DNA from: a virus
Virus record (IMG/VR): IMGVR_UViG_3300044691_000371
Span: 1 to 64,000 of that record
Direction: 5' to 3' (one strand)
Length of the DNA: 64,000 nt
Position 1 is the first letter of the stretch; every line of letters begins with the position of its first letter. Positions 30,399-53,674 of this stretch are shown one piece after another. The position numbers and the translations under genes are program-made. The notes beneath the pieces are model-generated. The model did no database searches, was not told the DNA's origin, and saw nothing but the letters and a program-made list of their open reading frames with translations.

Positions 30399-32840
30399 CT
30401 ATCCAAGTTTTGGTTTTACTCTTTGGGTTTTAGTTGTGCCTCCTGCTTGCGGTAATCCACGTCTGCGTTGTAGAAATTGCGTATATTCATCTTTCAATGC
30501 TGTTGTGATAAAGTAGCGGCTACAGTTATGTACTAAAATTCCATTTGCAAAAAATTCGTGTTCATCTTCAATTTCCAAATCGTAAACGTTTTTTACATTC
30601 TTTTGAGCATGTTTTTGTTGGGGCGTATTTATACACTGTAAATTCATTGTTGCAAATTGCGCATATTCTTTGTGTGTTTTCAAGTCCCAATTTCCGCCTG
30701 TATGCTGATTTGCAATTGTTAGAGCAAAAACGTTGTTCGATTGTTTTTTTTGTAAATTCCTTATTGCATACTTCGCAATTATATTGTCCATATGTAAGAT
30801 GTCCAAACCCGATATTTTTTGCATGTTGTTTACACCTTTCCCTCTCTGCTTCACTTCGTTCTCGTTTAGCTGCTGCTGGAATTGCTTTTTCGAGAAGATT
30901 TTTAAGCATTTTTGCTTTTTGTTCATCAGTCCATTCTTTACTATGGTCTGACATGTGCTGGCTTTTGGTTTTAAGCTCAAAATTGCTTGTTTCGTTATTT
31001 TCAGGATTGTGATCAATGTGGTGAACAACGTACCCTTTAGGTATTTCCCCGACTTCGCATTCGTATTTATAAACATGTAATCTTGTTTTTCTCCAATTTC
31101 CTTTACTGATTTTAACCCATCCTGAATAATATGGTTGGTCTCTTTTAGTTCCTGTGTACTTAATAAATCTAAATCCGTTATAGGTGATAATTTCTTTTCG
31201 CATACTAAATTATTTTCATCTAAAATACAAAAAGTACCGCAAACAATCAAATATATTTCTATAAAATCTTTTTCCTTAGTGTAAAATTTATGTTCTGGTG
31301 TGCATGTTACTTTAACATCACCTATTTGATATTCTTTAACCTGTCTATATCCATTATTCCAAACATTTAAAACTTTTTTATATCCATTTCTTGTCAAAAC
31401 ATTTTCACCTATTTTAATTTCATCAATTCTTTTATTTCCATTATCGGTCATTATAAAAGTTTCCCCGACAAAACAAGATAACATATGTCCGTACTTCTCA
31501 TAAGTTATACCTGTTTGTTTATCGGTTACTTTTTTAATAATGATTCCACCGTCTACATCTTCCGGCACCATTAAATAATCTTCAATCGATTTGTAACAAG
31601 TTTTATTTATAAAAATCTTCCATCCTAAATATTGCGTTTCTAAAATTTCGTTTATAAATGCCCCGCTTTGCGTTATACTTGGTGCTGACTTTCCAACTCT
31701 ATCAACAACTTTAAATCCTGCATTTTCTAAAACTCCTATGAATTTATCAAAAAATGATCTTCCATTATCATCTGTTGTTGATCTTGCGTTTGCAGATGGA
31801 TCGCCAAATACATTTATAATATCGTTATAATCTTCACGATCTAAATATTTAACTAATTCCATTGCTGCTTTTGCTGCTGTATTGTTTGGTGCAATACATG
31901 GTAATTCACCAATTTGTAATAATGCTTTCCCAACTTTATCAATCATCCAAAGTTGAACTGATACGTATGGGCTAACGTTATTGTCACAACTTACACAATA
32001 AGTAAATCCACGCTGTTTTAGCCCCGGTATTAAGTTAAAATCTATTGTGTGAAGGTTTGTATCAAAACATTTATAAAACGGATTTCCAGGCTTTCTAAAC
32101 CCCCAATTCCCAAGCGTAAACACATTGTAGTAATATGCGTTATTTTTTGATGTTCGATAACTCTCATATAATGCAATACGTTCGTCACTACAGTAAGGAT
32201 TATCTTTATACGTGCCATGGGTTGATCTTACCTTAAATTCTATTTTCCCTTTTGGTGTATCAATTTCGCGTACCCATTTAAAGTTTTTTTCTTCTGTATG
32301 TGAAAACCAATCCTGCCATAGCCAAAAATCAGTATAAGTAACGTCACATTCAGGATTAAAACTAAAATATGTTTTTACTTTTCCTTCGTTTGAACGCAAA
32401 GAGGTTAATATTACTATAAAATCATCCGCTGTTATCTGATTTGCTTCTTCTAACCATGCCCATGATGGATTCGCAAATGATTTTATTTTCTGAACGTCAT
32501 CTAATCCCCTGCCATAAAACGCCCCGCCATTGATACATTTAATTTCTAATGGTGAAGTTGTGAATTTAAAAAATTGTTGCAATCCCCAATTTTCAACTAC
32601 AATTTTAATCATCCCAACCATTGATTCAGAAACTGTATTATAGGTTTTCCTTATTAATAGCCCGCGAAATTTAGGATTAGACATACATTCGATTATGCCC
32701 ATTTGTGCTATCTGTCTCGTTTTGCCATTATCCCTGCCTCCCCAGAGGAAGTCAATATCAAAAACTTCTGGGTCATCGATTAAATGGTGGTAACATGGAA
32801 GGAACTTATCGCGACTGACTGTTATGTTTATTTCTGACAT
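30399..32840 (-). CDS. Terminase large subunit containing an intein
   Basis: The 813-residue precursor has a terminase ATPase (Walker A GGRDNGKT at 34-41; WLEEANQ Walker B region near 130) and an RNase H-like nuclease (NVFGDPSANARS near residue 345). An intein of 317 residues (456-772) interrupts the conserved HMLS-CSRYF segment near the nuclease end; removal would give about 496 residues, normal for the family. Splice residues are Cys1, terminal HN and Cys+1. It packages DNA with the portal encoded below. An HNH gene is nested in another frame of the intein. Confidence 0.85.
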   Translation of the reverse strand: MSEINITVSRDKFLPCYHHLIDDPEVFDIDFLWGGRDNGKTRQIAQMGIIECMSNPKFRGLLIRKTYNTVSESMVGMIKIVVENWGLQQFFKFTTSPLEIKCINGGAFYGRGLDDVQKIKSFANPSWAWLEEANQITADDFIVILTSLRSNEGKVKTYFSFNPECDVTYTDFWLWQDWFSHTEEKNFKWVREIDTPKGKIEFKVRSTHGTYKDNPYCSDERIALYESYRTSKNNAYYYNVFTLGNWGFRKPGNPFYKCFDTNLHTIDFNLIPGLKQRGFTYCVSCDNNVSPYVSVQLWMIDKVGKALLQIGELPCIAPNNTAAKAAMELVKYLDREDYNDIINVFGDPSANARSTTDDNGRSFFDKFIGVLENAGFKVVDRVGKSAPSITQSGAFINEILETQYLGWKIFINKTCYKSIEDYLMVPEDVDGGIIIKKVTDKQTGITYEKYGHMLSCFVGETFIMTDNGNKRIDEIKIGENVLTRNGYKKVLNVWNNGYRQVKEYQIGDVKVTCTPEHKFYTKEKDFIEIYLIVCGTFCILDENNLVCEKKLSPITDLDLLSTQELKETNHIIQDGLKSVKEIGEKQDYMFINTNAKSGKYLKGTLFTTLITILKITKQAILSLKPKASTCQTIVKNGLMNKKQKCLKIFSKKQFQQQLNENEVKQRGKGVNNMQKISGLDILHMDNIIAKYAIRNLQKKQSNNVFALTIANQHTGGNWDLKTHKEYAQFATMNLQCINTPQQKHAQKNVKNVYDLEIEDEHEFFANGILVHNCSRYFITTALKDEYTQFLQRRRGLPQAGGTTKTQRVKPKLG
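30525..31475 (-). other. Intein in the terminase, with block A, B, F and G motifs
   Basis: The element runs from Cys1 at 31475 to Asn317 at 30525. Block A is CFVGETFIMTDNG, block B is VKVTCTPEHKFYT, block F is VYDLEIEDEHEFFANG, and block G is ILVHN followed by Cys. All needed splicing residues are present. The in-frame middle (residues 91-290) has no LAGLIDADG or HNH motif and reads as low-quality protein, because the real endonuclease lies in the other frame (30568-31203). Confidence 0.85.
30568..31203 (-). CDS. HNH homing endonuclease nested out of frame inside the intein
   Basis: The 211-residue protein has an HNH core at about 50-90 (GYVVHHIDHNPENN, then NFELKTKSQHMSDH). Two C-terminal zinc-finger modules follow (CEVCNKEF...FCSNNC and CAICNNEF...TCSKEC). 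It starts at an ATG 272 bases into the intein and ends overlapping block F codons, all in a frame different from the intein. About 200 codons are therefore open in both frames. The clean HNH and four CxxC pairs show that this frame is selected. It probably mobilises the intein DNA. Confidence 0.8.
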   Translation of the reverse strand: MRKEIITYNGFRFIKYTGTKRDQPYYSGWVKISKGNWRKTRLHVYKYECEVGEIPKGYVVHHIDHNPENNETSNFELKTKSQHMSDHSKEWTDEQKAKMLKNLLEKAIPAAAKRERSEAERERCKQHAKNIGFGHLTYGQYNCEVCNKEFTKKTIEQRFCSNNCKSAYRRKLGLENTQRICAICNNEFTVYKYAPTKTCSKECKKRLRFGN

Positions 32841-32912: not shown

Positions 32913-34364
32913 TTAGAACGTTACCGCCTTTATTTCGTTGATTAACGCTTGTTTGTCGGTCTCTAACATCGCCATGGTTTGGAATATTTTGTCGCTGAAA
33001 CCGGCTAAACAAAATACTTTACTTTCAGGAAATTGCATTGTGCCTAATCCAGCAAGATCAAACGAATATATGAATGGATTTGCGCCAAATTTTTTATTGT
33101 ACTCTGATAATGGCACTTTAGGTGAATAGTAACCAATCCATCCTTGCATATCGCTAAAGATTAAAACACGTTCATATTTTTTATTAGCGTTTTTAAATAT
33201 GGAATGAAAGTTCGTTCCGTGTCCAACTTTGTTTTGACGTGTAAAATTAGCTGCGAAATCCATTGAATGTTGCGATAACTGATAATGAATGTAACGTGCA
33301 AAGTCTCCAAATTCCATTATATCAGCATTAATTGCCTTTGCTAAAACTATCCCAAACAAAGCCCCTAATTCCGATTTTTTCATGTGCTTTGAGTTTGAAA
33401 CTAAGCTATCCATCGACCCGGAATTGTCAACTGCAACTAATGTATTGCCGTCAAAGTTCAGCGTTTTAATGTTATTACAGCTTATATCGACCGCCTCACT
33501 TAATGCCTGTGTTATTTGACGTGCTTCTTTAGTGCCCAATGCTGAAAACTGTTTGTAAGCTATCAAATATTGAAACGGAAATATCAGCGACTTTTTAATG
33601 AACGATTCGCTTGTCAATGATGCCAATGCCTCTGTTAAAACTTCCGGTGCTTGTGTCATGATGTTTGACAGGTTACGAAGCAAAGCCAAATAACCTATTT
33701 TCTTTTCACGTACAAGGTTAATCCAAACTTCTTTTTTGGCGTTCTCAACATTATCACTTTGCCCCGCTGCTGTTAAACCTGATTCCCACGTATCAACTGA
33801 TTTCAGCGTACCGTTTACTAATGCCTTAATTGCTTCGGCGTTTTTTTCAACTGGTGTAGGGTGAACGATATTAACAACGTCAACAAGTTTTATTGCGTTC
33901 TTTTCGCCGCGGTATTTTGCCAGCTGGTATCCATCAAACTTTTCAAACGCCAATGCAAAGCCGCCTTTCATAGCGTTGGTTACTTTCCCGTTGTTGGCTT
34001 TGTGGTACGACAAAATTTCTGTCATATCATCCGGCCTGTAAATAACTGCATTGTAAAAAGCCTTTGCCCAATCATAGCCGCCGACCTGTATAGCTAATTC
34101 AGATGCAGCAACGTGGCTGATCGAACGCATACCGTATTTTGTACGTGCGTAAACGGCGGCTTGTGCAACGAATTTAGGATTGCATTGAGTAATTAAAGTT
34201 TTCAATCTCGTTAATGTATCGTTTGATTTTTCGTAAAATCCATCGCTTACAAATGAAGTAAGCAATATTGATACTAACTCTAATTCGGCAGATTGCTTGT
34301 GTGATTGCCCACCTGCTTTGTTTTCTACAAGTGCTGTAGATTCTGTTTTTGTGTTAAACTTCAT
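32913..34364 (-). CDS. Ro60/TROVE RNA-binding ring protein (Rsr-like)
   Basis: The 483-residue protein has a TROVE module over about residues 15-300 (helical HEAT-like repeats, e.g. CNPKFVAQAAVYARTKYGMR, LRNLSNIMTQAPEVL). A von Willebrand A domain follows over about 303-480, with a full MIDAS: VDNSGSMDS, GHGTNFHS and FSDMQGW. Length and order match bacterial Ro60 (Rsr), a ring that binds Y RNAs and misfolded RNA ends and works with exonucleases in RNA quality control. The four RNA units immediately upstream are its likely partners. Terminators on both sides make it a separate unit. Confidence 0.9.
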   Translation of the reverse strand: MKFNTKTESTALVENKAGGQSHKQSAELELVSILLTSFVSDGFYEKSNDTLTRLKTLITQCNPKFVAQAAVYARTKYGMRSISHVAASELAIQVGGYDWAKAFYNAVIYRPDDMTEILSYHKANNGKVTNAMKGGFALAFEKFDGYQLAKYRGEKNAIKLVDVVNIVHPTPVEKNAEAIKALVNGTLKSVDTWESGLTAAGQSDNVENAKKEVWINLVREKKIGYLALLRNLSNIMTQAPEVLTEALASLTSESFIKKSLIFPFQYLIAYKQFSALGTKEARQITQALSEAVDISCNNIKTLNFDGNTLVAVDNSGSMDSLVSNSKHMKKSELGALFGIVLAKAINADIMEFGDFARYIHYQLSQHSMDFAANFTRQNKVGHGTNFHSIFKNANKKYERVLIFSDMQGWIGYYSPKVPLSEYNKKFGANPFIYSFDLAGLGTMQFPESKVFCLAGFSDKIFQTMAMLETDKQALINEIKAVTF

Positions 34365-34390
34365 GATTATTTGATTTTAAAATTTGTTTA

Positions 34391-34429
34391 AAATAAAAAA
34401 GGCAGTCACTTTTTAGATGTACTGCCTTT
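34391..34429 (-). terminator. Terminator ending the Y-RNA-like array
   Basis: On the minus strand AAAGGCAGT and ACTGCCTTT form a perfect 9-bp stem followed by six Ts. It lies between the last RNA unit and the Ro60 ATG (34364), leaving only about 25 bases for any separate Ro60 promoter. Ro60 may therefore depend on read-through. Confidence 0.8.
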
Positions 34430-34436
34430 AAATGTT

Positions 34437-34520
34437 ATTGACAAAGAAAATTCAAGAGGGTTTACTGGGTTTCCCCACGAGTTAGAAAGTCGATGTAGCC
34501 CACTTATAACTATTGTCAAT
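34437..34520 (-). ncRNA. Y-RNA-like unit D
   Basis: The 84-base unit is closed by ATTGACAA (34520-34513) and TTGTCAAT (34444-34437), 8 perfect pairs. It contains TAGTTA after the 5' strand, a TGGG/CCCA inner helix, and CTACATCG, the variant of the shared UACUUCG motif. A GAAA-loop hairpin TGGG-GAAA-CCCA competes with the inner helix. Confidence 0.65.
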
Positions 34521-34523
34521 GTC

Positions 34524-34599
34524 ATTCAGGAGAAAATTGCGGCACGGTATTTTTTTGCATTTTCGAAGCGAAGTAACCGTATTGCTAACTACCTGAAAT
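34524..34599 (-). ncRNA. Y-RNA-like unit C
   Basis: The 76-base unit is closed by ATTTCAGG (34599-34592) and CCTGAAT (34530-34524). TAGTTA follows the 5' strand. The inner helix TACGGT/ACCGTG (34581-34576 with 34548-34543) encloses TACTTCG at its 5' side and a run of As at its 3' side, the same order as in units A and B. No tRNA-like domain. Confidence 0.7.
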
Positions 34600-34603
34600 A
34601 TTT

Positions 34604-34744
34604 ATTGTTGGAGAAAGGCTAAAAGAGTATTTTTTCTGTCCTGGGTACTACCACTATACTATACCCGAATTAATCGGATAAGAAGATTCGAACTCCTGTC
34701 ACAGGTTTGGTATCGAAGTAACTCTAATTATAACTACCAACAAT
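34604..34744 (-). ncRNA. Y-RNA-like unit B with permuted tRNA-like domain
   Basis: The 141-base unit is closed by ATTGTTGG (34744-34737) and CCAACAAT (34611-34604). The inner helix AGAGT/ACTCT encloses TACTTCG at one side and AAAAAAT at the other. Between them is a tRNA-like fold in the order CCTG, T arm (AGGAG-TTCGAAT-CTTCT), TATCCGA, loop TTAAT, TCGGGTA, TA, D arm (GTAT-AGTGGTA-GTAC), CAGG. The acceptor stem is capped by a loop and the anticodon position is open. That is the arrangement known from bacterial Y RNAs. Confidence 0.85.
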
Positions 34745-34747
34745 GAT

Positions 34748-34820
34748 TCTGTAAGGGAAAGTTTTGATCGCGTGTTTTTTCATTTACATCGAAGTAACGC
34801 ATTCAATAGCCACTTACAAA
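34748..34820 (-). ncRNA. Y-RNA-like unit A
   Basis: The 73-base unit is closed by TTTGTAAG (34820-34813) and CTTACAGA (34755-34748), 8 pairs with one GU. TGGCTA follows the 5' strand. The inner helix TGCGT/ACGCG (34801-34797 with 34773-34769) encloses TACTTCG and a run of As, as in B and C. It is the first unit after the promoter. Confidence 0.7.
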
Positions 34821-34860
34821 TTTTTATATCTTATCAAAGAACTATGCCCTAAATCGTTTT

Positions 34861-34893
34861 CAAATATAAAAACTTTTATCATTACAAAACAAA
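34861..34893 (-). promoter_or_regulatory. Promoter of the Y-RNA-like array
   Basis: On the minus strand TATATTTG (34868-34861) is preceded by TTTG at 34893-34890 (21 bases) or 34888-34885 (16 bases). The RNA start would be near 34854, about 35 bases before unit A. Confidence 0.7.
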
Positions 34894-34923: not shown

Positions 34924-35493
34924 ATGAATGAGCAAAAGCTATTAATCAATATCTTAATCAGAACAAGTAATAGACCTTTATCCTTTGCAAAATGTTTGCA
35001 ATCAGTGGTAGATCAGGATTATCCTAATATTCGAATAATTATTGGAATAGACAATCAAGGGGCTTTACGTTACATTCCAAAAGGATTAGAAGTTTACCCT
35101 GTAAGTGCTGATAAATCGGTAAAATATTTTTATGATCTGTATATTCCACAACTATTGCAATATGTAGAAGACGGTTACGTGCTAATTTTAGATGATGATG
35201 ATCGGCTTAATCCAAATGTGTTATCTAAATTGCAATTAGAAGGCCCAGGATTAATCGTTCAACTTCAAAGACAAAATACTATCGTTCCAAAAGATTTATT
35301 CTTTAAACGCGGTGGAATTGGCTTTCCTTGCCTTATCTTCCATCATTCATTGAAAAACGAATATCCTATTCATGGTGAAGGTGCAGGAGATTACTATTTT
35401 ATAAAATCCGCCTTATCAGATTTTCCGTTTCCATTTTTCCCTATCATTGTTGTTTATAGCCCATCTAAAGGCAATGGTAAATGTAATGGTTAA
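34924..35493 (+). CDS. GT-A glycosyltransferase
   Basis: The 189-residue, GT2-like protein opens INILIRTSNRPLSFAKCLQSV, a standard GT-A start, and has a metal-binding LILDDDDRLNP near residue 93. The C-terminal half is short compared with full GT2 enzymes. It is the only plus-strand gene of the sugar cluster and runs tail to tail into a minus-strand gene. A TACTTTTG element sits just before its ATG. Substrate unknown. Confidence 0.7.
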   Translation: MNEQKLLINILIRTSNRPLSFAKCLQSVVDQDYPNIRIIIGIDNQGALRYIPKGLEVYPVSADKSVKYFYDLYIPQLLQYVEDGYVLILDDDDRLNPNVLSKLQLEGPGLIVQLQRQNTIVPKDLFFKRGGIGFPCLIFHHSLKNEYPIHGEGAGDYYFIKSALSDFPFPFFPIIVVYSPSKGNGKCNG

Positions 35494-35666
35494 AATAATT
35501 CTTTAATATTTTCCTTCAACCGTTTTTTATCTTCTAGTTTCAAAGATGTTTCGTCAATTGAGTTTAATAAATTAACTGCTTTTTGAAACTTCTTATTGAA
35601 TTGTTCAGCCTTATAACTTTTATAAGATGGCTGTATTTTATATGAATATCCTTCGTCTAACATCAT
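35490..35666 (-). CDS. Small helical hypothetical protein
   Basis: A 58-residue frame (MMLDEGYSYKIQPSYKSYKA...) begins in TAATG shared with the upstream gene and ends overlapping the converging plus-strand gene by four bases. Charged and coiled-coil-like. Function unknown. Confidence 0.55.
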   Translation of the reverse strand: MMLDEGYSYKIQPSYKSYKAEQFNKKFQKAVNLLNSIDETSLKLEDKKRLKENIKELF

Positions 35667-35998
35667 TAAATCTTTTTCATTATTGATAAATCAAGGTGCC
35701 AATCTGAATATATTGAAAGTGTGTAAGTAATTCGATTGTGAGGTTTTTCTTCTGGGTTCCTAAAATGATGATCTTTCCAAACTGTTTCTCCTATACAATC
35801 AGAAATTGCTCTTACTAATTCTAATTCGGAACAGGCGTTTTCAACCCACGCAACTGCGATTATATCCATGTCGTTTGCCATACTTCCATGCAAGGCTAAT
35901 GTCCATCCTAAATCTAAAGCTACATTTCTGAATTTGGGCCAAAGAACTGTGTAAAATACTGCTTTGCCATTATGCGTGACTTCTGATCTTTCTTTCAT
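35666..35998 (-). CDS. Conserved phage protein with nucleotidyltransferase-like LHGSMANDMD
   Basis: The 110-residue protein has LGWTLALHGSMANDMDIIAVAW at about 30-52, a GS...DxD pattern reminiscent of the nucleotidyltransferase fold. Proteins of this size and motif are widespread in phages and uncharacterised. It overlaps the glycosyltransferase gene upstream by four bases. Enzymatic activity is not claimed. Confidence 0.55.
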   Translation of the reverse strand: MKERSEVTHNGKAVFYTVLWPKFRNVALDLGWTLALHGSMANDMDIIAVAWVENACSELELVRAISDCIGETVWKDHHFRNPEEKPHNRITYTLSIYSDWHLDLSIMKKI

Positions 35999-36621
35999 AA
36001 AGTCTTTTCAATTTCTAACCATGCTAATTTATCCTGTGCGATTATCTCCTGAAAATTCTTTAGTTTTTGGCAAGTCTGTGAGCCATTATGCCAGTGTTGT
36101 GCTATTAAATTAGCTTTAACAATTGTTCTATAACCGGCTTTTCTTATTTTTGTGTATGCCCATAAATCTCCGAACCACACGAGAATACTTTCTGGAATTG
36201 GGTAAACTAACTTTGCCATTTCTTTATTTAATTGGATGAAGACGCCAGGAGTTCCATTAAAAACTATTTCGTCCTGTTTATGCGTACCGTCACTTGGGAT
36301 TGCACTTATGTTATCTTCCAAATGTTTGCTCCATCCTGCCGTCATAATAAGATCGCTATTCATTATAATTAGTTGATCATAGTGGCTTTTCAAAAAGTAA
36401 TCTATTATTTGATTCCAAGCCGCATTTACGTAGATGTTACGCTCATTCTGAATTACCTTGACGTTTGGATATTCAAACCACATTTGCTTTATAGCTTGCT
36501 TTACATCTATTTCAGAACCGTTGTCAATTATTAACAGGTCAGTCTCTTGTATAACTGATTTGAAGGCTTTTAAACAGGTTTCACCGTTATACAAAACCGG
36601 AATTCCGCAAAGTATTTTCAT
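35995..36621 (-). CDS. GT2-type glycosyltransferase
   Basis: The 208-residue protein begins MKILCGIPVLYNGETCLKAF, continues DLLIIDNGS, NVKVIQNERNIYVNAAWN and LIIMNSDLIMTAGW (the DxD-like site), and has WFGDLWAYTKIRKAGY later. This is a typical small GT-A enzyme. It belongs to a phage sugar cluster; it could decorate virion proteins, modified DNA or host surface polymer. Confidence 0.75.
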   Translation of the reverse strand: MKILCGIPVLYNGETCLKAFKSVIQETDLLIIDNGSEIDVKQAIKQMWFEYPNVKVIQNERNIYVNAAWNQIIDYFLKSHYDQLIIMNSDLIMTAGWSKHLEDNISAIPSDGTHKQDEIVFNGTPGVFIQLNKEMAKLVYPIPESILVWFGDLWAYTKIRKAGYRTIVKANLIAQHWHNGSQTCQKLKNFQEIIAQDKLAWLEIEKTL

Positions 36622-36818
36622 GATTGTGATTTAATATTGGGAAACATTGTTGATAATACATGTAATTGGTGCTTTTCACATATCCAAACTAATGTATTAC
36701 CAAATTGAAATATTTTGCCACCCTTTCTACATCCTTCATAATCACACATATGTCCTATTGCATAAATTGGTTCTCCGTCTTCATTTTTTACGGGTTCTTT
36801 CATTTCATTTACTGACAT
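36618..36818 (-). CDS. Small zinc-binding protein
   Basis: The 66-residue protein has HMCDYEGCRKGG and, 20 residues on, WICEKHQLH, a C2HC-like set of ligands. It overlaps both neighbours. Role unknown. Confidence 0.6.
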   Translation of the reverse strand: MSVNEMKEPVKNEDGEPIYAIGHMCDYEGCRKGGKIFQFGNTLVWICEKHQLHVLSTMFPNIKSQS

Positions 36819-36979
36819 TCTATTTCATCCATTAAAACTTTAACCATTTCACAAGCCCTTTTATGAATATATTCGAGTTCGTTCTTTTCGGCAAAAAACA
36901 TAAGCCGTACAAACCCCATAAACCGTTGCTTTAATTCGTGTCGGTCTTTGCTGATATAAATTACATCCGGTGGTTCCAT
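36809..36979 (-). CDS. Small hypothetical protein
   Basis: A 56-residue, helical frame (MEPPDVIYISKDRHELKQRF...) overlaps the zinc-binding gene start by about 10 bases. Reasonable composition and tight packing. Function unknown. Confidence 0.5.
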   Translation of the reverse strand: MEPPDVIYISKDRHELKQRFMGFVRLMFFAEKNELEYIHKRACEMVKVLMDEIECQ

Positions 36980-36981
36980 GT

Positions 36982-37326
36982 TTAATAACTTGGTTTATGT
37001 GCGTATTCTCTTTCGGCTATTTGTGGTTCACTTTTTTTAGCTTCATCCCATGCGTATTTTGGCATGTCTGCAATATCTGGTTTTGATTTAACCGAACTCA
37101 TTTTTAAGTTTGCCGCGTTGTCGGTATCGGGTGTTTTGTTGTAGTATTGATCGTAAATATTTTTCAAATCTATTTCCAATTGAGCGATTTGTTTTTCAGT
37201 GCTAATCCTGTTTGAAAAGTTATCGCTTAATCCTTCGATTAGTTTTTATCTTTCGTGGTTAAGCCGTCTTACAAATTCTTTCTTTTCCTGAATTGCGTTT
37301 TCGATTACATTGATTAATTCTTGCAT
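36982..37326 (-). pseudogene. Coiled-coil protein gene with an in-frame TAA
   Basis: From the ATG at 37326 the frame encodes 26 residues (MQELINVIENAIQEKKEFVR...) and meets TAA at 37248-37246. The same frame then continues for 87 codons (KLIEGLSDNFSNRISTEKQI...) to a stop at 36982. Both halves share one helical, charged character, so one gene seems to be interrupted. Readthrough, re-initiation at the TTG at 37179, or decay are all possible. Confidence 0.55.
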
Positions 37327-37338
37327 GGTTGTTTTTGA

Positions 37339-37713
37339 TTAATTATTTTGAATTGTATGTGATGAAAATCCGTCTCCTGCGCTTTCTGCATCTAATGCCT
37401 TTTCTAACTTTTCTGTAAAGTCAATTAGTGGCATTAAAACATATCCGGTCGTTTCTGTTATGCACTGCAATAAGTTCAAACTATCAGTTGTTTTCTTTTG
37501 CCATGCTTTTTTGTCGCCGTTATAATCAGCTAATTTTGATTTAAACCTAATTTCATCTCCTGTTTGAATTATGCACGAATACGATGGATTAAGCTTATTT
37601 AAAAACTCACTATATCCCGGCGTATGAAGCACAACCATTGCACCTATGTCATGCTTTGCAAGGATAGCTTTTATTTCTTCCATTGCGGTTTTTAATTTTG
37701 GGCTGTATTGCAT
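37339..37713 (-). CDS. Hypothetical protein
   Basis: The 124-residue protein begins MQYSPKLKTAMEEIKAILAK and contains GAMVVLHTPGYSEFLNKLNP and FTEKLEKALDAESAG. It resembles small uncharacterised phage proteins. The ATG follows TTTAATCACACAAA, a recurring leader motif. Function unknown. Confidence 0.5.
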   Translation of the reverse strand: MQYSPKLKTAMEEIKAILAKHDIGAMVVLHTPGYSEFLNKLNPSYSCIIQTGDEIRFKSKLADYNGDKKAWQKKTTDSLNLLQCITETTGYVLMPLIDFTEKLEKALDAESAGDGFSSHTIQNN

Positions 37714-37722
37714 TTTGTGTGA

Positions 37723-38226
37723 TTAAATATGTTCATTAATAAATTTATCAATATCAGGACTTAAAAGCAAGTGAACATTTCGCGTTATTCTTTCGTCATC
37801 CCAATCCCACCACGCTATCTCTAAAAGGCTATTTATCTGCTCTGTGTTGAATCTTTTTCTTTTTACAACATTTGCCCCGACTACAATAGAATAAGGCTCT
37901 ACATCCTTTGAAATAAAGCTCATTGCCCCTATTACCGCCCCGTGTCCTATGTTTACCCCGGTTGCTATGTAACTTCTCATTCCGATTGTTACATCTGACC
38001 CAATTATTATATCACCTCTCATTTGATTATACCCTGCATCAATATGTGAAGCACTTGGCCAAAGGTTTTTAAACGGGTATGTAGTAACTAAATAAGGGTC
38101 ATGTGATTGACCGCCATCAAAAACGTTCGCTTCGGCTATGCTTGTAAAATTTCCAATGATAACGTTATTTCCGTTACCGTATTGGTGAACCTCTCCATAG
38201 GTGTATTTGCCTTTAGTTACTGCCAT
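37723..38226 (-). CDS. Hexapeptide-repeat acyltransferase
   Basis: The 167-residue protein has left-handed beta-helix repeats (NNVIIGNFTSIAE, DIIIGSDVTIGMRSYIATG, NIGHGAVIGAMSFISKDV) and a C-terminal helix pair with AWWDWDDERI, as in CatB/Vat-type acetyltransferases and sugar O-acetyltransferases. HDPYLVTTYPF holds the likely active-site His. It probably acetylates a sugar made by the neighbouring glycosyltransferases. Confidence 0.75.
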   Translation of the reverse strand: MAVTKGKYTYGEVHQYGNGNNVIIGNFTSIAEANVFDGGQSHDPYLVTTYPFKNLWPSASHIDAGYNQMRGDIIIGSDVTIGMRSYIATGVNIGHGAVIGAMSFISKDVEPYSIVVGANVVKRKRFNTEQINSLLEIAWWDWDDERITRNVHLLLSPDIDKFINEHI

Positions 38227-38908
38227 TGTTTTTCAGAATGGTTAACCCGTTATTTTCTTGCGTTTCGTAAAACAATGTCCAGTTCGGATTATCTCTTAAA
38301 AAGTTTTCAATTGCAGGATATAATCCTTCCGGCCCATTCATAAAATCAGCTACACCTGGATACCACGGCTCCGACTTCCATCGATAGGCGTATTCGGCTG
38401 TGTCATGCCATAAAATGTATTTATTTACTTTATGAGCGTGTAGTTTTAATTCTGCTGTAGCCTGATTAAATGAATGGTAGCTATCAACGAGTAACATATC
38501 TGTTTGTTCAATATCGGCCTCTAAACAGTTTTGAGTTATAAATTGAAAATTTTGTCCAGCTTCTAAACACAATTGTTCAACCTCGTCAACATCATCCCAA
38601 CGACCTATATCGTAGCTAACAACTCGCTTTGGTTTCGCTGCAAGTAATGCGTATGTGCTTGTTGGTCGCCTTACTCCAAATTCAGTGCAATGATCGCAAA
38701 GTTGGGCAATCTCAAATATTTTTGGTAGTAACAAATTTATATCGCTTTCTTCGTTGCATTTTTCGAGATACTTTTTCATTATCTCGCTAATCTCTGGTTT
38801 TTGTGGTTGTTCTTTCGGTTGCTCCGCTTTTTCAGTAGTTGCATTTTTTGCAACAACTGCCTTTTCAATCTTTGTTTCGGTCTGTACTTTCTTTGGTCTA
38901 CCTGCCAT
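38213..38908 (-). CDS. SAM-dependent methyltransferase-like protein
   Basis: The 231-residue protein has a Lys/Glu/Pro-rich, possibly disordered N-terminus (1-45) followed by a Rossmann methyltransferase-like domain: CTEFGVRRPTSTYALLAAKPKRVVSYDIG (split motif I), then TDMLLVDSYHSFNQATAEL and KYILWHDTAEY, as in the Methyltransf_24 group. The Gly-rich loop is weak (EFGVRR), so activity is uncertain. It lies in the sugar cluster, where such enzymes methylate glycans. Confidence 0.6.
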   Translation of the reverse strand: MAGRPKKVQTETKIEKAVVAKNATTEKAEQPKEQPQKPEISEIMKKYLEKCNEESDINLLLPKIFEIAQLCDHCTEFGVRRPTSTYALLAAKPKRVVSYDIGRWDDVDEVEQLCLEAGQNFQFITQNCLEADIEQTDMLLVDSYHSFNQATAELKLHAHKVNKYILWHDTAEYAYRWKSEPWYPGVADFMNGPEGLYPAIENFLRDNPNWTLFYETQENNGLTILKNNGSN

Positions 38909-38935
38909 TTTATTTTATTTTTTAGTGTGTGATTA

Positions 38936-39157
38936 TTATCCTACTTCAAATCCTTTATCCCATGCTTTTGTTAGGGTCAAATCGTTCATTTTATGTGTTT
39001 CAATAGGGCTTAAAACTATATCACCATCTCCCCGTTCAATGTTAACTGAATTGATTGATAGGTAATCATCTGTTGATTCTGTATAAGCCCACATAAAGAC
39101 TTCGCTTTCCTTGTTTGGCACTTGATTAAGCAACTCTATAAGAGTTTTAACGGTCAT
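38936..39157 (-). CDS. Small hypothetical protein
   Basis: The 73-residue protein opens with MTVKTLIELLNQVPNKESEV, a pattern shared by many small phage proteins, and ends WDKGFEVG. Function unknown. Confidence 0.5.
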   Translation of the reverse strand: MTVKTLIELLNQVPNKESEVFMWAYTESTDDYLSINSVNIERGDGDIVLSPIETHKMNDLTLTKAWDKGFEVG

Positions 39158-39447
39158 TACTCTAAATATTTAATGTTTGTGTATGTAAATTCATAATATG
39201 AATCATTATCGCCTTCGCCTTGATACCATTCACCTGAAATATCTACTAATATCCAGCTCCCATTATTGACAGCAATAAATTGATCGTAGTTATTATCGAA
39301 TAAATCTTTTTGAAGTTCTTCAATTAAGTTTGTGTTTAAAACGCCTTCATAAATATGATGAAATCCATTTAACAAAGGCTGAATCATATCATCTTCGTCT
39401 TTTTCAATCCATATTTCAGCTTGAAACTTACAATCGAATTTATTCAT
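39157..39447 (-). CDS. Hypothetical acidic protein
   Basis: The 96-residue protein is acidic and aromatic, with beta strands at both ends and a helix in the middle (NLIEELQKDLFDNNYDQF). It has its own promoter at 39468-39500. Function unknown. Confidence 0.5.
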   Translation of the reverse strand: MNKFDCKFQAEIWIEKDEDDMIQPLLNGFHHIYEGVLNTNLIEELQKDLFDNNYDQFIAVNNGSWILVDISGEWYQGEGDNDSYYEFTYTNIKYLE

Positions 39448-39467
39448 TTAGCTTCTTATTTGAATTT

Positions 39468-39500
39468 CAAAGGTAAACAAAAAGTTTTTGTATTTGCAAA
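39468..39500 (-). promoter_or_regulatory. Phage-family promoter (TTTG-N21-TACCTTTG)
   Basis: TTTG (39500-39497) and TACCTTTG (39475-39468) on the minus strand, with the GCAAATACAAAAAC block shared by other copies. Confidence 0.65.
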
Positions 39501-39505
39501 TTAAT

Positions 39506-40060
39506 TTAAAGGTATTGCGTTCTGATAGCGTTACATTCAGATGGTGTAAGCCAAACATCTATGGCGTGAAACCCTATCGTTTGAAGCTGAAAAACGGCCT
39601 CTACGCTGAACTTACTGCAAACTTCTCGTGGTGCTAAGTTCATTCCAAATTCGTGCATGACATTGCAAATATGATGATCTTCGTTTAACGTTCCGTTCCA
39701 GGTTCCTTTGTCAATTATCTGCATCATTGCTTTTGGATTACGTATTGATAGTCCTCCGTTTCCTCCGTGTTCCTGCCATGCCCATGGCGCACCGCAATAG
39801 TCCCACTCTAAAAAGTCCTCTATCCCTGTTCTAAGCAATCCTGAATCGTGTTGGAATATAAGTACTCTCTCCGATAAAATATTTCGCCACAGACGCTTAG
39901 AAAGCATTAAGCGGTTATAATCACCTATTGAATTGATTGGCTCGTTTTTGATGTGATAGATTTCACAGTCTTTCGGCAAATACTTTTCGTGATTTTCGAT
40001 TATTTGTGTTAATCCTGGTATCTCGCGATTTTCAATAATTAATGCCGAAAAACTTTGCAT
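39506..40060 (-). CDS. DUF5672-like glycosyltransferase
   Basis: The 184-residue protein has RVLIFQHDSGLL, FLEWDYCGAPWAW, GGNGGLSIRNPKAM and LNEDHHICNVM, the sequence of motifs seen in DUF5672 (glycosyltransferase-like) proteins. It is part of the sugar cluster. Acceptor unknown. Confidence 0.7.
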   Translation of the reverse strand: MQSFSALIIENREIPGLTQIIENHEKYLPKDCEIYHIKNEPINSIGDYNRLMLSKRLWRNILSERVLIFQHDSGLLRTGIEDFLEWDYCGAPWAWQEHGGNGGLSIRNPKAMMQIIDKGTWNGTLNEDHHICNVMHEFGMNLAPREVCSKFSVEAVFQLQTIGFHAIDVWLTPSECNAIRTQYL

Positions 40061-40062
40061 AG

Positions 40063-40818
40063 TTAAAATATTACATCTTTTGGATAATTGAAATGTTGGC
40101 GAAGTATTTCTGGTAGTTGTGTTTTGTCAAAATCGGTTGCTTGTGGCCATAAATTATGCGAAACGAGGTGAAGACCAAGCGGTATTTCCATGCCAGGTTG
40201 CCAGCGTTCATATACGTCTGTTAACCAATTAGGACGAATTTCTGACTTATGGCCGTGAATTAATAGCTTGTAACGCATTATTTCCATTCTTTGAGCGCAT
40301 CCAAAATGATAAACAGTTCCATCTACAACGTCCCATCCTTCGCAATCCCTATTATGTAAATTATGAAACCTTATAGGAGTAAATGAATCGTAGCAGGCAT
40401 GATTAAATGATTTCCAAAAATTGATATATCTGGAAAACCCTATATTTCTTTTAGTTGATTGCCAACACTGTTCAATCTGTTCGTCAATATCACCGAAAAC
40501 TTCATCCGCATCGAAAACTAAAATTCCGTCATATTTACCGTCTTCTGCTATCTTGAATATTTTCCCTCTATGAACACCCTCTTGTCCTGCATCAACATTC
40601 ACCCACTTTACTTTATTTGATGCGCTATAAGCTATATTCATTAAATCGCTTTCGCTTTCTGGGCAACTTATATTCGTTCCATGTCCGTGGCTTGGTTTTG
40701 ATGTATAAAGCACTATTATTTCTTCGCAATATCTTGCCGCTGATCTTATCGCACAGTCCAAATATTCCCCACCATAATGTAAAATTAATTCGCCGAGGAC
40801 ACGTTTATTATTTTCCAT
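40063..40818 (-). CDS. GT2-type glycosyltransferase
   Basis: The 251-residue protein has an N-terminal GT-A pattern (LGELILHYGGEYLDCAIRSA, EEIIVLYTS) and ILVFDADEVFGDIDE with the DxD metal site near residue 105. The C-terminal part has several His and Trp residues. Coupled to the 108-residue gene upstream. Confidence 0.7.
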   Translation of the reverse strand: MENNKRVLGELILHYGGEYLDCAIRSAARYCEEIIVLYTSKPSHGHGTNISCPESESDLMNIAYSASNKVKWVNVDAGQEGVHRGKIFKIAEDGKYDGILVFDADEVFGDIDEQIEQCWQSTKRNIGFSRYINFWKSFNHACYDSFTPIRFHNLHNRDCEGWDVVDGTVYHFGCAQRMEIMRYKLLIHGHKSEIRPNWLTDVYERWQPGMEIPLGLHLVSHNLWPQATDFDKTQLPEILRQHFNYPKDVIF

Positions 40819-41144
40819 TACAAATTATATTCTAAAAAATCAATTGCTGTTTGTGCTGAAACGCGCCATGCATTAGCTTGTTTTTCGGTTAATTCGTTAG
40901 TGAAAAACTGATCTGATTTAGGCAAGTCTTCACCTTTAAATGATTTACTCCCAACCGCTACACAATAATCATCATACATTTTGCGGGCCAATTGTTCTTT
41001 TTTGCTTAATGTGCTTGGCATATTATAAAATTTAATATTTGTTTCTTGTGGTTTTATTTCACCGGCGTACAATTCAGTTACATAAGTCCCATTAGTTTCG
41101 ATGGCTAATTGCTTGAATATGATTGCTTCTTTTTTAGTTTCCAT
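40818..41144 (-). CDS. Hypothetical protein of the sugar cluster
   Basis: The 108-residue protein contains LSKKEQLARKMYDDYCVAVG and ends in WRVSAQTAIDFLEYNL. It overlaps its neighbours. No function recognised. Confidence 0.5.
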   Translation of the reverse strand: METKKEAIIFKQLAIETNGTYVTELYAGEIKPQETNIKFYNMPSTLSKKEQLARKMYDDYCVAVGSKSFKGEDLPKSDQFFTNELTEKQANAWRVSAQTAIDFLEYNL

Positions 41145-42069
41145 TGTATTTGTTATAAAGATTCAAAATTTCTTCGCCCATTTTTTCAAATGAAAATTTT
41201 TCTTGTGCTAATTTATGTCCTAAAAATGCAATTTGTTTTCGTTCATTTTCATGTTGTAGGTAATAGTTAATTTTGTTTTTTAAATCATTTAAATCATCAA
41301 AAACATCTAAATGAGTCCCTATTTCAAAATCTTTTTCAATTCCTTTATATCTATGGCTTAAAACCATTATTCCTACTCCAATCATGCGAAATAATCTATC
41401 GCTACTGTATCTATCACTATCAAAATGACTTAAATTGATTCCTATTTTTGCACCTCTGTAAACTGCTGCTTCGCCTCTTTGATCGCTCATGAATTGTCCT
41501 CCGTCTGGTTGACCGCTTCCAAATGCTTTAAACCTTTCGCTATAGGTTCGCTTTAATTCCTTTACCATTTCACGCCTTAAACCTGACAATGGAAATTGAC
41601 TAAATGTATTACCGAAAAAAACTATCTCCGCTAAACTATTTACCGGCCCAATATTGCTATAAATATCTGGACTTATGCCAATTTGAAGAAAATCTGCATC
41701 ATATCCACATTTCCGCATAATGTCAACATCTTCGGTATTGCTAAATGTAGATAAATCAAATCCCCATTTAGCGTAATTAAAATAACATTCCGGTAGGATA
41801 TTTCTCTTATCTCCGCTCCACCCAATTACATATCCACCATTATCTTTTAAAGCTTTAATAGCTTCTGGACTAATCCCTTCTGATTGGATTTGCACCCAAA
41901 TCAAATCCGGATTATACGTATTAGCAACATTAATTATTTGAAAATTCAAATCCAGTGATTGAGATGCTATTTCTCTGTATTCCCAACCTTGTGATTCAAA
42001 TGCTTTCTTTAATCCTAATCCATGATGATCTGGAATGCAACTCATTCCTATATGTAATGCTTTTTTCAT
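41134..42069 (-). CDS. GT-B-type glycosyltransferase
   Basis: The 311-residue protein has LIWVQIQSEGISPEAIKAL and YVIGWSGD in the N-domain. The C-domain has IVFFGNTF, RGAKIGINLSHF, SSDRLFRMIGVG and FSFEKMGEEILNLY, typical of the Glyco_trans_1_2 group of GT-B enzymes. It belongs to the sugar cluster. The upstream GIY-YIG gene overlaps it by four bases. Confidence 0.75.
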   Translation of the reverse strand: MKKALHIGMSCIPDHHGLGLKKAFESQGWEYREIASQSLDLNFQIINVANTYNPDLIWVQIQSEGISPEAIKALKDNGGYVIGWSGDKRNILPECYFNYAKWGFDLSTFSNTEDVDIMRKCGYDADFLQIGISPDIYSNIGPVNSLAEIVFFGNTFSQFPLSGLRREMVKELKRTYSERFKAFGSGQPDGGQFMSDQRGEAAVYRGAKIGINLSHFDSDRYSSDRLFRMIGVGIMVLSHRYKGIEKDFEIGTHLDVFDDLNDLKNKINYYLQHENERKQIAFLGHKLAQEKFSFEKMGEEILNLYNKYNGN

Positions 42070-50791: not shown

Positions 50792-50897
50792 CGTTCATCC
50801 AGTTTGGCTCGCTGTTATCAAAATATGATTTATTAAAACCTTTGCGAATCTGATTCACAAAAAGTATAAGTAAAATGAGTAAGGCTAAATTTATCAT
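50754..50897 (-). CDS. Small membrane protein
   Basis: A 47-residue frame (MINLALLILLILFVNQIRKG...) with one N-terminal transmembrane helix and an acidic tail. It overlaps the TAGT gene stop by four bases. Confidence 0.5.
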   Translation of the reverse strand: MINLALLILLILFVNQIRKGFNKSYFDNSEPNWMNDENIQSDREDSL

Positions 50898-51751
50898 GGT
50901 TTTTTATGTTTTTCGTTAATTATCATTGGGGTTGTGTTTACCCATTTTATTGAATGATGTATTCGAGGATGATTGCTGTTCATCATTGATACCTTTACCC
51001 CGGACGGATGCATCATAACAGTTGTAAACGCTTTACAGTATGTTCCAAATCTTAAATACATATCCGTAATGCCTGATTTGTTTGATTGTGTTGCGGTTTG
51101 ATTTAAGGCAACAAAGCAGATATTTAAAAACATATCGCCCCGGCTACCTAATGTTATATAAGTGTTCACATCTTCGTTCATTGCACCGATAAAATTAAAC
51201 GGCCTTTCAGTTGAGCAAAAAAATGAGTTCATACACTTTCTTTTCGGAAATCTGTATAGTTGTTTCCCGTTATCAAATCCGCCTATGAAGTCTCCGTTTT
51301 GAGCAAATGCAATAGATAAAAAGTTGTTTTGTTTGTAATAATCTAACAGTAACTTAAACATTTTATCTAAGTTTTTTATGATAAAAAGGCTATTATTTGT
51401 TTCGACTAATTTATATCTAAAGTCGGTATAGTCGTCGTCTAATTGAACAAAATAAGTAATTCCTAATTCTTTAGCTATTTCAAAACATGCATTTCGTGCG
51501 TGTGTTATAGTTCGGAGTTCATCGAAATTATTTCCTTCGTCAACTTTATCAGCATGATATTTTTTATCGAAAATCTTTACATTTTCAATCCCAAAACTTT
51601 TTATGTATTCATCGACTTTTTTATCTTCATTGTCAACTATGAAAAATATTCTGCCTGTATAACCGCATTTTTTTAAAGTAGGTAAGGTCTTAATATTATG
51701 TGGCCTCCCGTGTGTTAAAATGAAAACTGCAAAGTCGTTATTCTGCTCCAT
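50894..51751 (-). CDS. TAGT-like glycosyltransferase (DNA hypermodification)
   Basis: 285 residues from the ATG at 51751. The opening FAVFILTHGRPHNIKTLPTL, then GRIFFIVDNEDKKVDEYIKS, FDKKYHADKVDEGNN, HARNACFEIAKELG and YFVQLDDDYTDF follow the motif order of TET/JBP-associated glycosyltransferases, which are linked to modified bases in phage DNA. LDDD is the metal site. Neighbours encode a CPPYY DNA methyltransferase and a DUF5131-like protein, supporting base modification. I recognise the family by pattern only; no TET/JBP oxygenase is in the window. Confidence 0.65.
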   Translation of the reverse strand: MEQNNDFAVFILTHGRPHNIKTLPTLKKCGYTGRIFFIVDNEDKKVDEYIKSFGIENVKIFDKKYHADKVDEGNNFDELRTITHARNACFEIAKELGITYFVQLDDDYTDFRYKLVETNNSLFIIKNLDKMFKLLLDYYKQNNFLSIAFAQNGDFIGGFDNGKQLYRFPKRKCMNSFFCSTERPFNFIGAMNEDVNTYITLGSRGDMFLNICFVALNQTATQSNKSGITDMYLRFGTYCKAFTTVMMHPSGVKVSMMNSNHPRIHHSIKWVNTTPMIINEKHKKP

Positions 51752-52139
51752 ATTCTTCCATGTATTGCGACTTAATATCATCACACAATCTTATATATCC
51801 GTATTCGATTGCCTTATTAAAATCAATTATTACAAGTGCTGAACGTTCCATTAAGTGTTGCATTTCTTTACTTGAATGAGCGTAATAATCAGCAATCTTT
51901 TCGTAGTGAAAAACGTTATGCCTTTTTGCCGCTTCTATCAAAAATGTTTTTTCATCTTCGCTAACATTTGAAGTCTGAATTTCCCTGATTATACGCTTTG
52001 TTTTGCTATCTTCTAAAAGTTCTAAAAGATGTGGCTTTACGTTTTTAGGTTCGTAAATCGGTGCTTCAATCTTTGATGAATACTTTTTATCTTCTTCTTT
52101 TTCAAGATGATCGTTACCGAATAAATTAACTTGCTTCAT
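51738..52139 (-). CDS. Conserved phage protein of the modification cluster
   Basis: About 133 residues from the ATG at 52139. Contains VKPHLLELLEDSKTKRIIRE, DEKTFLIEAAKRHNVFHYE and YYAHSSKEMQHLMERSALVI, a block I associate with uncharacterised phage proteins encoded near methylases. It overlaps the TAGT start. An earlier start at 52199 is possible. Function unknown. Confidence 0.55.
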   Translation of the reverse strand: MKQVNLFGNDHLEKEEDKKYSSKIEAPIYEPKNVKPHLLELLEDSKTKRIIREIQTSNVSEDEKTFLIEAAKRHNVFHYEKIADYYAHSSKEMQHLMERSALVIIDFNKAIEYGYIRLCDDIKSQYMEEYGAE

Positions 52140-52840: not shown

Positions 52841-53674
52841 TTATTTCTTTTTGAATAAGTCTAACTGCTTTATAATTCCAGGTTTATCAGGATATAATTG
52901 TTTTTCAGGTTTGATATTTAAGCCACACATTTCTTGGCATGTTGAACATTTTCCAAAATATGTTTTAGGATTAAATTTACTCATTAAAGTGTTTTTACCT
53001 AAAAACTTTGACTTTTTTACGTTAATTATTCCGTTTGTAACAAGTTCATTATGTGGATTAACTCTTAAAACCGTGTCTAACGTAGCTTCGTTTTTAAACA
53101 GTTCTGATTGAACTTTAGCTAACTTATGGCCTATTTCATTATCCATATTAAAATCAGCTGATACAACCCTTAAAACTGACTTACAATAGCTTTTAATCCT
53201 ATTATATTGCTCAATGCTATTTTTCAATAATTCCGGCTTATCAAGTGCTGAAACACTTGTGTTGATACAAACGTTTATTGTACTTAAAAACTGTAAATGT
53301 TCATCAGTTAAGTTGGTCCAGTGCTTTGTTATTATTACAATTTCCTTGTTTGCGTGACAAATTATTTTACAAATATTAATCGTATGCTCCCAGTTTTCTG
53401 ATGGGTCGCCACTACATCCTATCCTAACAAAATCAAGTTTTATTTTACTTATTTGCTGTATAACCTGTCTTTCGTGCCTTTTATTGTCGAAATATCTTAA
53501 TACTGTTTTGCTGAAATCGTACCCGTATAATTTAGCTGATTTTGCTGCGTAACAGTCATTATAACAGCCACCTTTTTCATTTGACATTCCACTTTCACAA
53601 CCAATTGTAGTGTCTAAGCAGTAAACGCCACGGTCATTTTTAGATAAGGCTATTCGACTTGAATAAAGTTTCAT
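52841..53674 (-). CDS. DUF5131/radical-SAM-like cysteine protein
   Basis: The 277-residue protein has TTIGCESGMSNEKGGCYNDC at about 22-41 followed by YAAKSA, matching the GC...GCxxCYA start of DUF5131 (phage Gp37/Gp68) proteins, relatives of radical SAM enzymes. VRIGCSGDPSENW and IVIITKHW follow as in a TIM-barrel. A second cluster CSTCQEMC lies near residue 245. It overlaps the methyltransferase stop by four bases. Likely part of the DNA-modification set; reaction unknown. Confidence 0.6.
   Translation of the reverse strand: MKLYSSRIALSKNDRGVYCLDTTIGCESGMSNEKGGCYNDCYAAKSAKLYGYDFSKTVLRYFDNKRHERQVIQQISKIKLDFVRIGCSGDPSENWEHTINICKIICHANKEIVIITKHWTNLTDEHLQFLSTINVCINTSVSALDKPELLKNSIEQYNRIKSYCKSVLRVVSADFNMDNEIGHKLAKVQSELFKNEATLDTVLRVNPHNELVTNGIINVKKSKFLGKNTLMSKFNPKTYFGKCSTCQEMCGLNIKPEKQLYPDKPGIIKQLDLFKKK

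What the first reader, a model, noticed from the sequence alone, without database searches (positions are those of the whole stretch)
32913..34893. Phage-borne Ro60 with an array of four Y-RNA-like RNAs
A full-length Ro60 ortholog (TROVE ring plus VWA with intact MIDAS) lies directly downstream of a 384-base non-coding stretch (34437-34820). The stretch resolves into four tandem units, each with its own 7-8 bp closing helix. Bacterial Rsr genes usually have one or two Y RNAs; a four-unit array in a phage of this type is, as far as I know, undescribed. The system could recruit host exonucleases, steer structured RNA decay during infection, or protect phage RNAs.
Basis: partly seen in the sequence, partly recalled or inferred. 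Interest (0 to 1): 0.95.

Follow-up and report, generated by a model that had tools for sequence, protein, structure and literature searches.

The report
Phage Ro60 with four Y RNAs
A virus of Bacteroidota-type bacteria carries a gene for the RNA-handling ring protein Ro60 together with a row of four small partner (Y) RNAs; virus-borne Ro60/Y RNA pairs were already known, but such rows, with mostly stripped-down RNAs and a ribosomal-RNA-type start signal, are a little-described variant.

Summary
ORF 32913-34364(-) is a full Ro60/Rsr: TROVE and vWA domains, intact MIDAS, and a predicted fold whose best PDB hits are a Thermus phage Ro60, animal Ro60 and D. radiodurans Rsr. A covariance model built only from other phages and metagenome genomes finds three units at 34525-34597, 34750-34818 and 34439-34518 (-) with E = 4e-13 to 7e-9; the next-best hit in the window is E = 0.85. 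The fourth unit (34604-34744) carries a permuted tRNA-like domain, found by a second window-blind model (E = 1.5e-7). The helices covary strongly across phages. A DNA-only motif scan of IMG/VR gave 23 stretches, 19 in records that also encode TROVE, so Ro60-partner Y RNAs is the best reading. The array has a Bacteroidota-type promoter, a boxA element matching Bacteroidota 16S rRNA leaders, and an intrinsic terminator before rsr.

The novelty was overstated. Phage Ro60 and phage Y RNAs are known, and arrays of three to five occur in many relatives. Only one of the four units has the tRNA-mimic effector domain. Less expected are the boxA leader, the three minimal units, and a conserved module absent from Rfam. 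Binding, expression and PNPase tethering are untested.

The parts
32913..34364 (-). Ro60/Rsr gene, 483 aa (TROVE ring plus vWA with MIDAS)
   Evidence: Pfam TROVE 1e-16; PHROG 850 1.3e-38; AlphaFold and Foldseek hits to phage phiLo Ro60, animal Ro60, D. radiodurans Rsr; MIDAS residues invariant
34437..34520 (-). Y-RNA-like unit U1 (minimal module with its own apical hairpin; CUACAUC variant of the motif)
   Evidence: R1 E=6.9e-9 at 34439-34518; 8-bp closing helix
34525..34597 (-). Y-RNA-like unit U2 (minimal module, UUACUUC)
   Evidence: R1 E=3.6e-13; 6-bp closing helix
34604..34744 (-). Y-RNA-like unit U3, the only one with a tRNA-like domain
   Evidence: 8-bp closing helix; R1 matches its 5' half only (E=1); contains the R2 hit
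34645..34698 (-). Permuted tRNA-like domain inside U3: T-arm (AGGAG-UUCGAAU-CUUCU), 7-bp acceptor-like stem closed by a loop, D-arm (GUAU-AGUGGUA-GUAC)
   Evidence: R2, built without the window, E=1.5e-7; R2 also hits the Rfam YrlA domains of bacterial Y RNAs
34749..34819 (-). Y-RNA-like unit U4 (minimal module, UUACUUC), first in the transcript
   Evidence: R1 E=1.1e-11 at 34750-34818
34828..34843 (-). boxA-like element AGTTCTTTGATAAGAT, starting 24 nt 5' of U4
   Evidence: Position; shares GTTCTTTGATAAGAT with two Bacteroidota 16S leaders; GTTCTTTGA occurs once in both strands of the window; 6 of 32 arrays have one, 0.28 hits expected
34861..34893 (-). Bacteroidota-type promoter TTTG-N21-TATATTTG
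   Evidence: Pattern match 40 nt 5' of the array; 7 of 32 arrays have one, 0.31 hits expected
34395..34429 (-). Intrinsic terminator between array and rsr (AAAGGCAGT...ACTGCCTTT plus T-run)
   Evidence: 0 of 300 shuffles as good; also in L001, L002, L004, L005, L006, L009, L016
32862..32888 (-). Intrinsic terminator after rsr
   Evidence: Pattern scan

Best explanation
This is a phage-encoded Ro60 ribonucleoprotein locus. A host-type promoter starts a roughly 450-nt untranslated transcript with an rRNA-type boxA, so that host Nus factors keep RNA polymerase processive through a structured, untranslated row of four Y RNAs; transcription ends at an intrinsic terminator, with rsr made from read-through or a weak promoter. 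The units are probably separated by nucleases at the 4-6 nt linkers. Each unit binds a Ro60 ring through its paired ends and internal loop. U3 also carries a tRNA mimic that would tether Ro60 to an effector, most likely host PNPase as in the Deinococcus RYPER complex. U1, U2 and U4 lack that domain and would stabilise Ro60 and gate its RNA-binding surface without recruiting the effector, so the array would set the ratio of decay-competent to merely gated Ro60. Shown here: gene identity, RNA modules, tRNA-like domain, covariation, genetic linkage, terminator. Supported by motif and position only: promoter, boxA. Inferred: binding, processing, PNPase tethering, gating role. (Identity as Ro60 with Y RNAs alone: about 0.93; the whole mechanism: the confidence given.)
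For: Window-blind models find U1, U2, U4 and the U3 domain. Covariation: 13 of 14 pairs of the module change on both sides, 95.9% paired against 63.6% in shuffles, 0 of 500; 11 of 17 pairs of the tRNA-like domain. The RNA motif alone predicts Ro60: 19 of 23 IMG/VR stretches lie in records with TROVE, and all 16 with the gene inside the fetched stretch have it on the same strand. The tRNA-like domain model also hits bacterial YrlA RNAs. Terminator conserved in eight phages. boxA and promoter enriched just 5' of arrays. Literature: Y RNA tethers Rsr to PNPase through the tRNA-like domain (PMC8394870); boxA serves long non-coding RNAs and CRISPR arrays (PMC7862264).
Against: No expression or binding data. 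No Rfam Y RNA model matches the window. The 5' internal-loop sequence of known YrlA (GCGAAUGC) is replaced here (UAGUUAUAA or similar). Some Ro60-bearing relatives show no recognisable unit (L027, L018). boxA is found in only 6 of 32 arrays. No PNPase or RtcB family was among the proteins scanned in the record, so the effector must come from the host, which is unknown.
Confidence: 0.6

Rival explanations
1. The array is a decoy: the tRNA mimic (and the small units, by titrating Ro60) soaks up host tRNA-cleaving defence nucleases or other tRNA-acting enzymes, sparing phage translation; Ro60 mainly stabilises the decoy.
For: U3 keeps T-, D- and acceptor-like arms. A competitive-inhibitor role of the YrlA tRNA-like domain against an anticodon nuclease was proposed in PMC7790460. 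A strong promoter and boxA would give high RNA levels.
Against: Only one of four units has the mimic, and it lacks an anticodon arm, the usual target. The rest of the module is linked to Ro60 (19 of 23).
Confidence: 0.17
2. The four units are a cis-acting leader of rsr: Ro60 binding to its own 5' RNA controls read-through of the terminator, as autoregulation.
For: Units sit 5' of rsr with an intrinsic terminator between.
Against: In crAss001, cr106_1, Pseudomonas, Rhizobium and several IMG/VR loci the units lie downstream of the gene. Each unit closes on its own and spacing to the gene varies. Four covarying modules and a tRNA mimic are more than a leader needs.
Confidence: 0.1
3. The units are decayed tRNA genes or a phage tRNA cluster, with chance hairpins.
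For: Phage tRNA genes often sit near such loci (L008, L038), and U3 has tRNA arms.
Against: ARAGORN finds no tRNA. The arms are in permuted order with compensatory changes. Three units share no tRNA features but share a covarying module.
Confidence: 0.02

Closest known systems
Bacterial Y RNAs of the YrlA type (Rfam RF02553) with Rsr
   Same: Encoded beside rsr; ends pair into a two-helix stem with an internal loop; permuted tRNA-like domain (T-arm, looped acceptor, D-arm) in U3, found by a model that also hits YrlA
   Different: No RF02553 match; internal-loop and apical motifs differ (UAGUGA / UUACUUC / UUUUCU against GCGAAUGC / ACUACAU / ACUUGUC); three of four units lack the tRNA-like domain
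RYPER (Ro60-Y RNA-PNPase) of Deinococcus radiodurans
   Same: Same protein fold (2nvo) and the same kind of RNA; likely way of working
   Different: PNPase partnership untested; phage setting; four RNAs in one array
Phage Ro60 genes: Thermus phage phiLo (PDB 9l5y), crAss001 TROVE, Listeria phage CKA15 Rsr with abundant ncRNAs
   Same: Phage-borne Ro60; in CKA15 with nearby abundant ncRNAs, in crAss001 with early expression
   Different: About 26-28% protein identity to phiLo and crAss001; the four-unit order with boxA is particular to this group
boxA-led untranslated transcripts (rRNA operons; CRISPR arrays)
   Same: boxA at the 5' end of a long structured untranslated RNA; sequence shared with Bacteroidota 16S leaders
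   Different: Nus-factor action not shown for Y RNAs

Membership tests
Ro60/Rsr (TROVE) protein | TROVE HEAT-repeat ring domain | tested here: met
   Pfam PF05731 61.6 bits against cut-off 23; Foldseek to Ro60 structures E down to 3e-17
Ro60/Rsr (TROVE) protein | vWA domain with MIDAS (DxSxS, T, D) | tested here: met
   D313, S315, S317, T384, D405 invariant in the alignment; Pfam vWA_Ro60 matches below its cut-off
Ro60/Rsr (TROVE) protein | Binds Y RNA and misfolded RNA | not testable with these tools
   needs protein and RNA
Bacterial/phage Y RNA (Ro60-associated ncRNA) | Encoded next to a Ro60 gene | tested here: met
   Array ends about 72 nt 5' of the rsr start codon; 19 of 23 motif-found stretches are in records with TROVE
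Bacterial/phage Y RNA (Ro60-associated ncRNA) | Stem formed by the paired 5' and 3' ends | tested here: met
   Covarying closing helix and helix 2; four closing helices in the window
Bacterial/phage Y RNA (Ro60-associated ncRNA) | At least one RNA per locus with a tRNA-like domain (T, acceptor, D arms) | tested here: met
   U3, E=1.5e-7; covariation
Bacterial/phage Y RNA (Ro60-associated ncRNA) | Expressed and bound by Ro60 | not testable with these tools
   no RNA or binding data
Rfam RF02553 YrlA | Score above the family's gathering threshold | tested here: not met
   No match in the window even at E<=10; so not filed as YrlA proper
RYPER complex | Y RNA tethers PNPase to Ro60 | not testable with these tools
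   only the tRNA-like domain needed for it is present
boxA antitermination site | Sequence of the host phylum's rRNA boxA, 5' of an untranslated RNA, sense strand | tested here: met
   15 nt shared with L043 and L045 16S leaders; starts 24 nt 5' of U4
boxA antitermination site | NusB/S10 binding and Rho resistance | not testable with these tools
   biochemical

The most novel reading that the evidence does not exclude
The UAGUGA/UUACUUC/UUUUCU module is the general Ro60 handle of a large phage RNA family not in Rfam, spread over Bacteroidota phages including crAss001 and found beside TROVE in other phages and bacteria. Phages string several copies, most without any effector domain and some with effector domains other than the tRNA mimic, behind an rRNA-type antitermination signal to flood the cell with Ro60 partners of set stoichiometry.
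Probability: 0.45. Interest if true: 0.68.

Novelty: new variant of a known kind. Interest (0 to 1): 0.52.

Why it matters
It gives a sharply defined, testable phage Ro60 system: four RNAs of two classes with known borders, a promoter, a candidate antiterminator and a terminator. It can show what Y RNAs without an effector domain do, since effector-bearing and bare units sit in one transcript. The covarying module gives a search model for Y RNAs that Rfam misses, including in crAss-like phages where the TROVE protein is reported to be an early gene. If boxA works here, phages borrow the ribosomal RNA processivity machinery for their own non-coding RNAs.

Tried and rejected
Rfam scan of the window: nothing relevant. 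ARAGORN: no tRNA, which rejects an ordinary tRNA cluster. Folding energies of single units and of the whole array are mostly not significant against shuffles, so they were not used as evidence. The + strand was rejected: T-loop, D-loop and model hits are on the - strand, and TROVE is on the same strand as the motif in all 16 loci where both are seen. First MAFFT alignments were out of register at the 3' end and were replaced. A 16S search in the genomes of L026-L029 found none, so other Bacteroidota genomes were used. The roughly 200-nt domain in L005/L006/L009/L016 has no Rfam match and was left. Key papers (Chen 2014; Sim and Wolin 2018; Sim 2020) are not held; statements about them beyond what held papers say rest on memory.

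Full report
What the window is. The window is bases 1-64000 of an 84,826-base IMG/VR virus record. It encodes a terminase with an intein, a portal, a tape measure protein and, in the rest of the record, endolysins and a YqaJ recombinase. A Bacteroidota-type promoter, Bacteroidota-type boxA and Bacteroidota MAG relatives suggest a Bacteroidota host; this is inference.

The protein. ORF 32913-34364(-) is 483 aa. Pfam TROVE matches at 1e-16 and PHROG 850 (RNA-binding protein) at 1.3e-38. Fourteen IMG/VR relatives at 47-88% identity were found, 93 phage records in INPHARED, 41 plasmids and five genome contigs, four of them labelled as Bacteroidota MAGs. The MIDAS residues D313, S315, S317, T384 and D405 are invariant. 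The AlphaFold model (pLDDT 82, pTM 0.79) matches the TROVE/Ro60 structures of Thermus phage phiLo, animal Ro60 and D. radiodurans Rsr. Ro60 identity is secure.

The RNA units. Reading the - strand 5' of the gene gives four modules in the order U4-U3-U2-U1. Each has the form closing helix / UAGUNA-like strand / helix 2 / UUACUUC or a variant / variable middle / helix 2' / nnUUUUCU / closing helix'. The same module appears next to Ro60 in L001-L014 and beside TROVE in csAssE-Sib, cr106_1, crAss001, a Microcystis phage and others. I aligned seven minimal units from six other loci, leaving out the window and its nearest relative: 13 of 14 pairs have changes on both sides, 95.9% of cells are paired against 63.6% in shuffles, and slid controls give 35-50%. 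The pairs were chosen by eye from these sequences, which favours them, but the number of two-sided changes is far above the controls. The model R1 built from this alignment hits the window, both strands, filters off, at 34525-34597 (3.6e-13), 34750-34818 (1.1e-11) and 34439-34518 (6.9e-9), all minus; the next is 0.85. In the whole record there is nothing else. E-values are rough because calibration was short.

The fourth unit. U3 has the 8-bp closing helix and the motif, but about 75 bases are inserted in the middle, so R1 sees only its 5' half. The insert holds a T-arm, an acceptor-like stem closed by a loop and a D-arm: a circularly permuted tRNA mimic without an anticodon arm, like the domain described for YrlA (PMC8394870). 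A second model, R2, from seven such domains in relatives (covariation in 11 of 17 pairs) hits 34645-34698(-) at 1.5e-7, next 0.68. R2 also hits the positions where Rfam YrlA matches loci L033, L034, L035, L037 and L038. So U3 is structurally a YrlA-like Y RNA, although the Rfam model misses it.

Linkage to Ro60. A DNA-only pattern built from the module, with no protein information, was scanned over IMG/VR: 23 stretches. Sixteen have a TROVE gene in the fetched stretch, every one on the same strand as the motif; three more have it elsewhere in the record. The four exceptions are two 9-kb fragments, one 57-kb record and one hit without an R1 match, probably chance. A few stretches are near-identical copies of the same phage (L052/L057/L069; L059/L060/L066; L053/L070), so the independent number is smaller. 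Several hold arrays of three to five units (L055, L059, L061, L064, L073). Bacterial Rhizobium and Novosphingobium plasmids have three or four YrlA matches in a row. Multi-unit arrays are therefore common, not peculiar to this phage.

Transcription signals. A TTTG-N21-TATATTTG promoter lies 40 nt 5' of U4; this is the Bacteroidota consensus (established knowledge; one search located papers that print TAnnTTTG, not read in detail). Just downstream is AGTTCTTTGATAAGAT (34843-34828). GTTCTTTGATAAGAT is found 85 nt 5' of the 16S gene in two Bacteroidota genomes, and GTTCTTT[GA]A lies within 200 nt of the 16S start in seven of twelve loci fetched. It matches the published boxA consensus GYTCTTTAANA except for one base (PMC5725501). 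Over 32 arrays, six have a boxA-like site in the 200 nt upstream where 0.28 hits are expected, all 13-26 nt from the first unit, and seven have the promoter where 0.31 are expected. The arrays of L001, L002, L004 and L011 belong to the same phage group, so these are not six independent events, and in L002, L004 and L011 a small ORF overlaps the site. An intrinsic terminator lies between U1 and rsr (0 of 300 shuffles) and is kept in seven relatives. The array is thus most likely a transcription unit of its own.

Mechanism. From established knowledge of Ro60 RNPs: Y RNA ends bind the Ro60 ring, the tRNA-like domain tethers PNPase (RYPER), and Y RNA binding gates access of other RNAs. Mapped onto the window, U3 is the tether and U1, U2 and U4 are gates or stabilisers. 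That the minimal units lack the tRNA-like domain is shown; what they do is inferred. Timing is unknown; in crAss001 a TROVE protein is an early gene (PMC10136315), and in Listeria phage CKA15 abundant ncRNAs near an Rsr gene were suggested to be Y RNAs (PMC12282133).

Known or new. Phage Ro60 with Y RNAs is known. From memory, Chen et al. 2014 reported likely Y RNAs near Ro60 in more than 250 bacterial and phage species, at least one per species with a tRNA-like domain; the paper is not held, but PMC12282133 confirms the mycobacteriophage part. The window fits that rule, with one tRNA-like unit in four. What I could not find described in the papers searched: the phage module as a covarying family, the 3:1 make-up, and the boxA leader. 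I rate it a new variant of a known kind.

Noticed in passing
30399-32840(-) with 30568-31203(-): Terminase large subunit holds an intein; inside the intein region a 211-aa HNH endonuclease ORF (Pfam HNH_3, 1e-12) runs in a different frame, so about 630 bases may code twice. The nearest relative L001 has the terminase without the intein.
   Followed up: partly
L005 4668-4940, L006, L009, L016: In these records the second Y unit carries a different domain of about 200 nt with conserved AGUUUCGGGAGAAUUCU, no Rfam match: possibly another effector domain on a Y RNA.
   Followed up: partly
L021 4496-5100 (crAss001), L020 4455-4720 (cr106_1): Several UUACUUC modules lie downstream of the TROVE gene; some appear inserted between the D-arm and T-arm of a tRNA in normal order, unlike the permuted YrlA layout. 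Not annotated as RNA genes in the record.
   Followed up: partly
L036, downstream of the rsr gene (Pseudomonas sp. Leaf58 plasmid): Four short Y-like units with GAAUGC / CUACAU motifs and no tRNA-like domain follow the rsr gene.
   Followed up: no
L002, L004, L011 just 5' of the array: A small ORF (RRFxxFIEQxWxDRL..., ribbon-helix-helix-like by eye) ends across the boxA and into the first Y unit.
   Followed up: no
50894-51784(-), 53671-55113(-), 34924-42069: DNA-modification and sugar genes: TET-associated glycosyltransferase, DNA methyltransferase-like protein, several glycosyltransferases and an acyltransferase beside the Ro60 locus: the phage may carry glycosylated DNA.
   Followed up: no
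L027, L018: Ro60 genes without a recognisable module within 3 kb: either another Y RNA type or loss.
   Followed up: no
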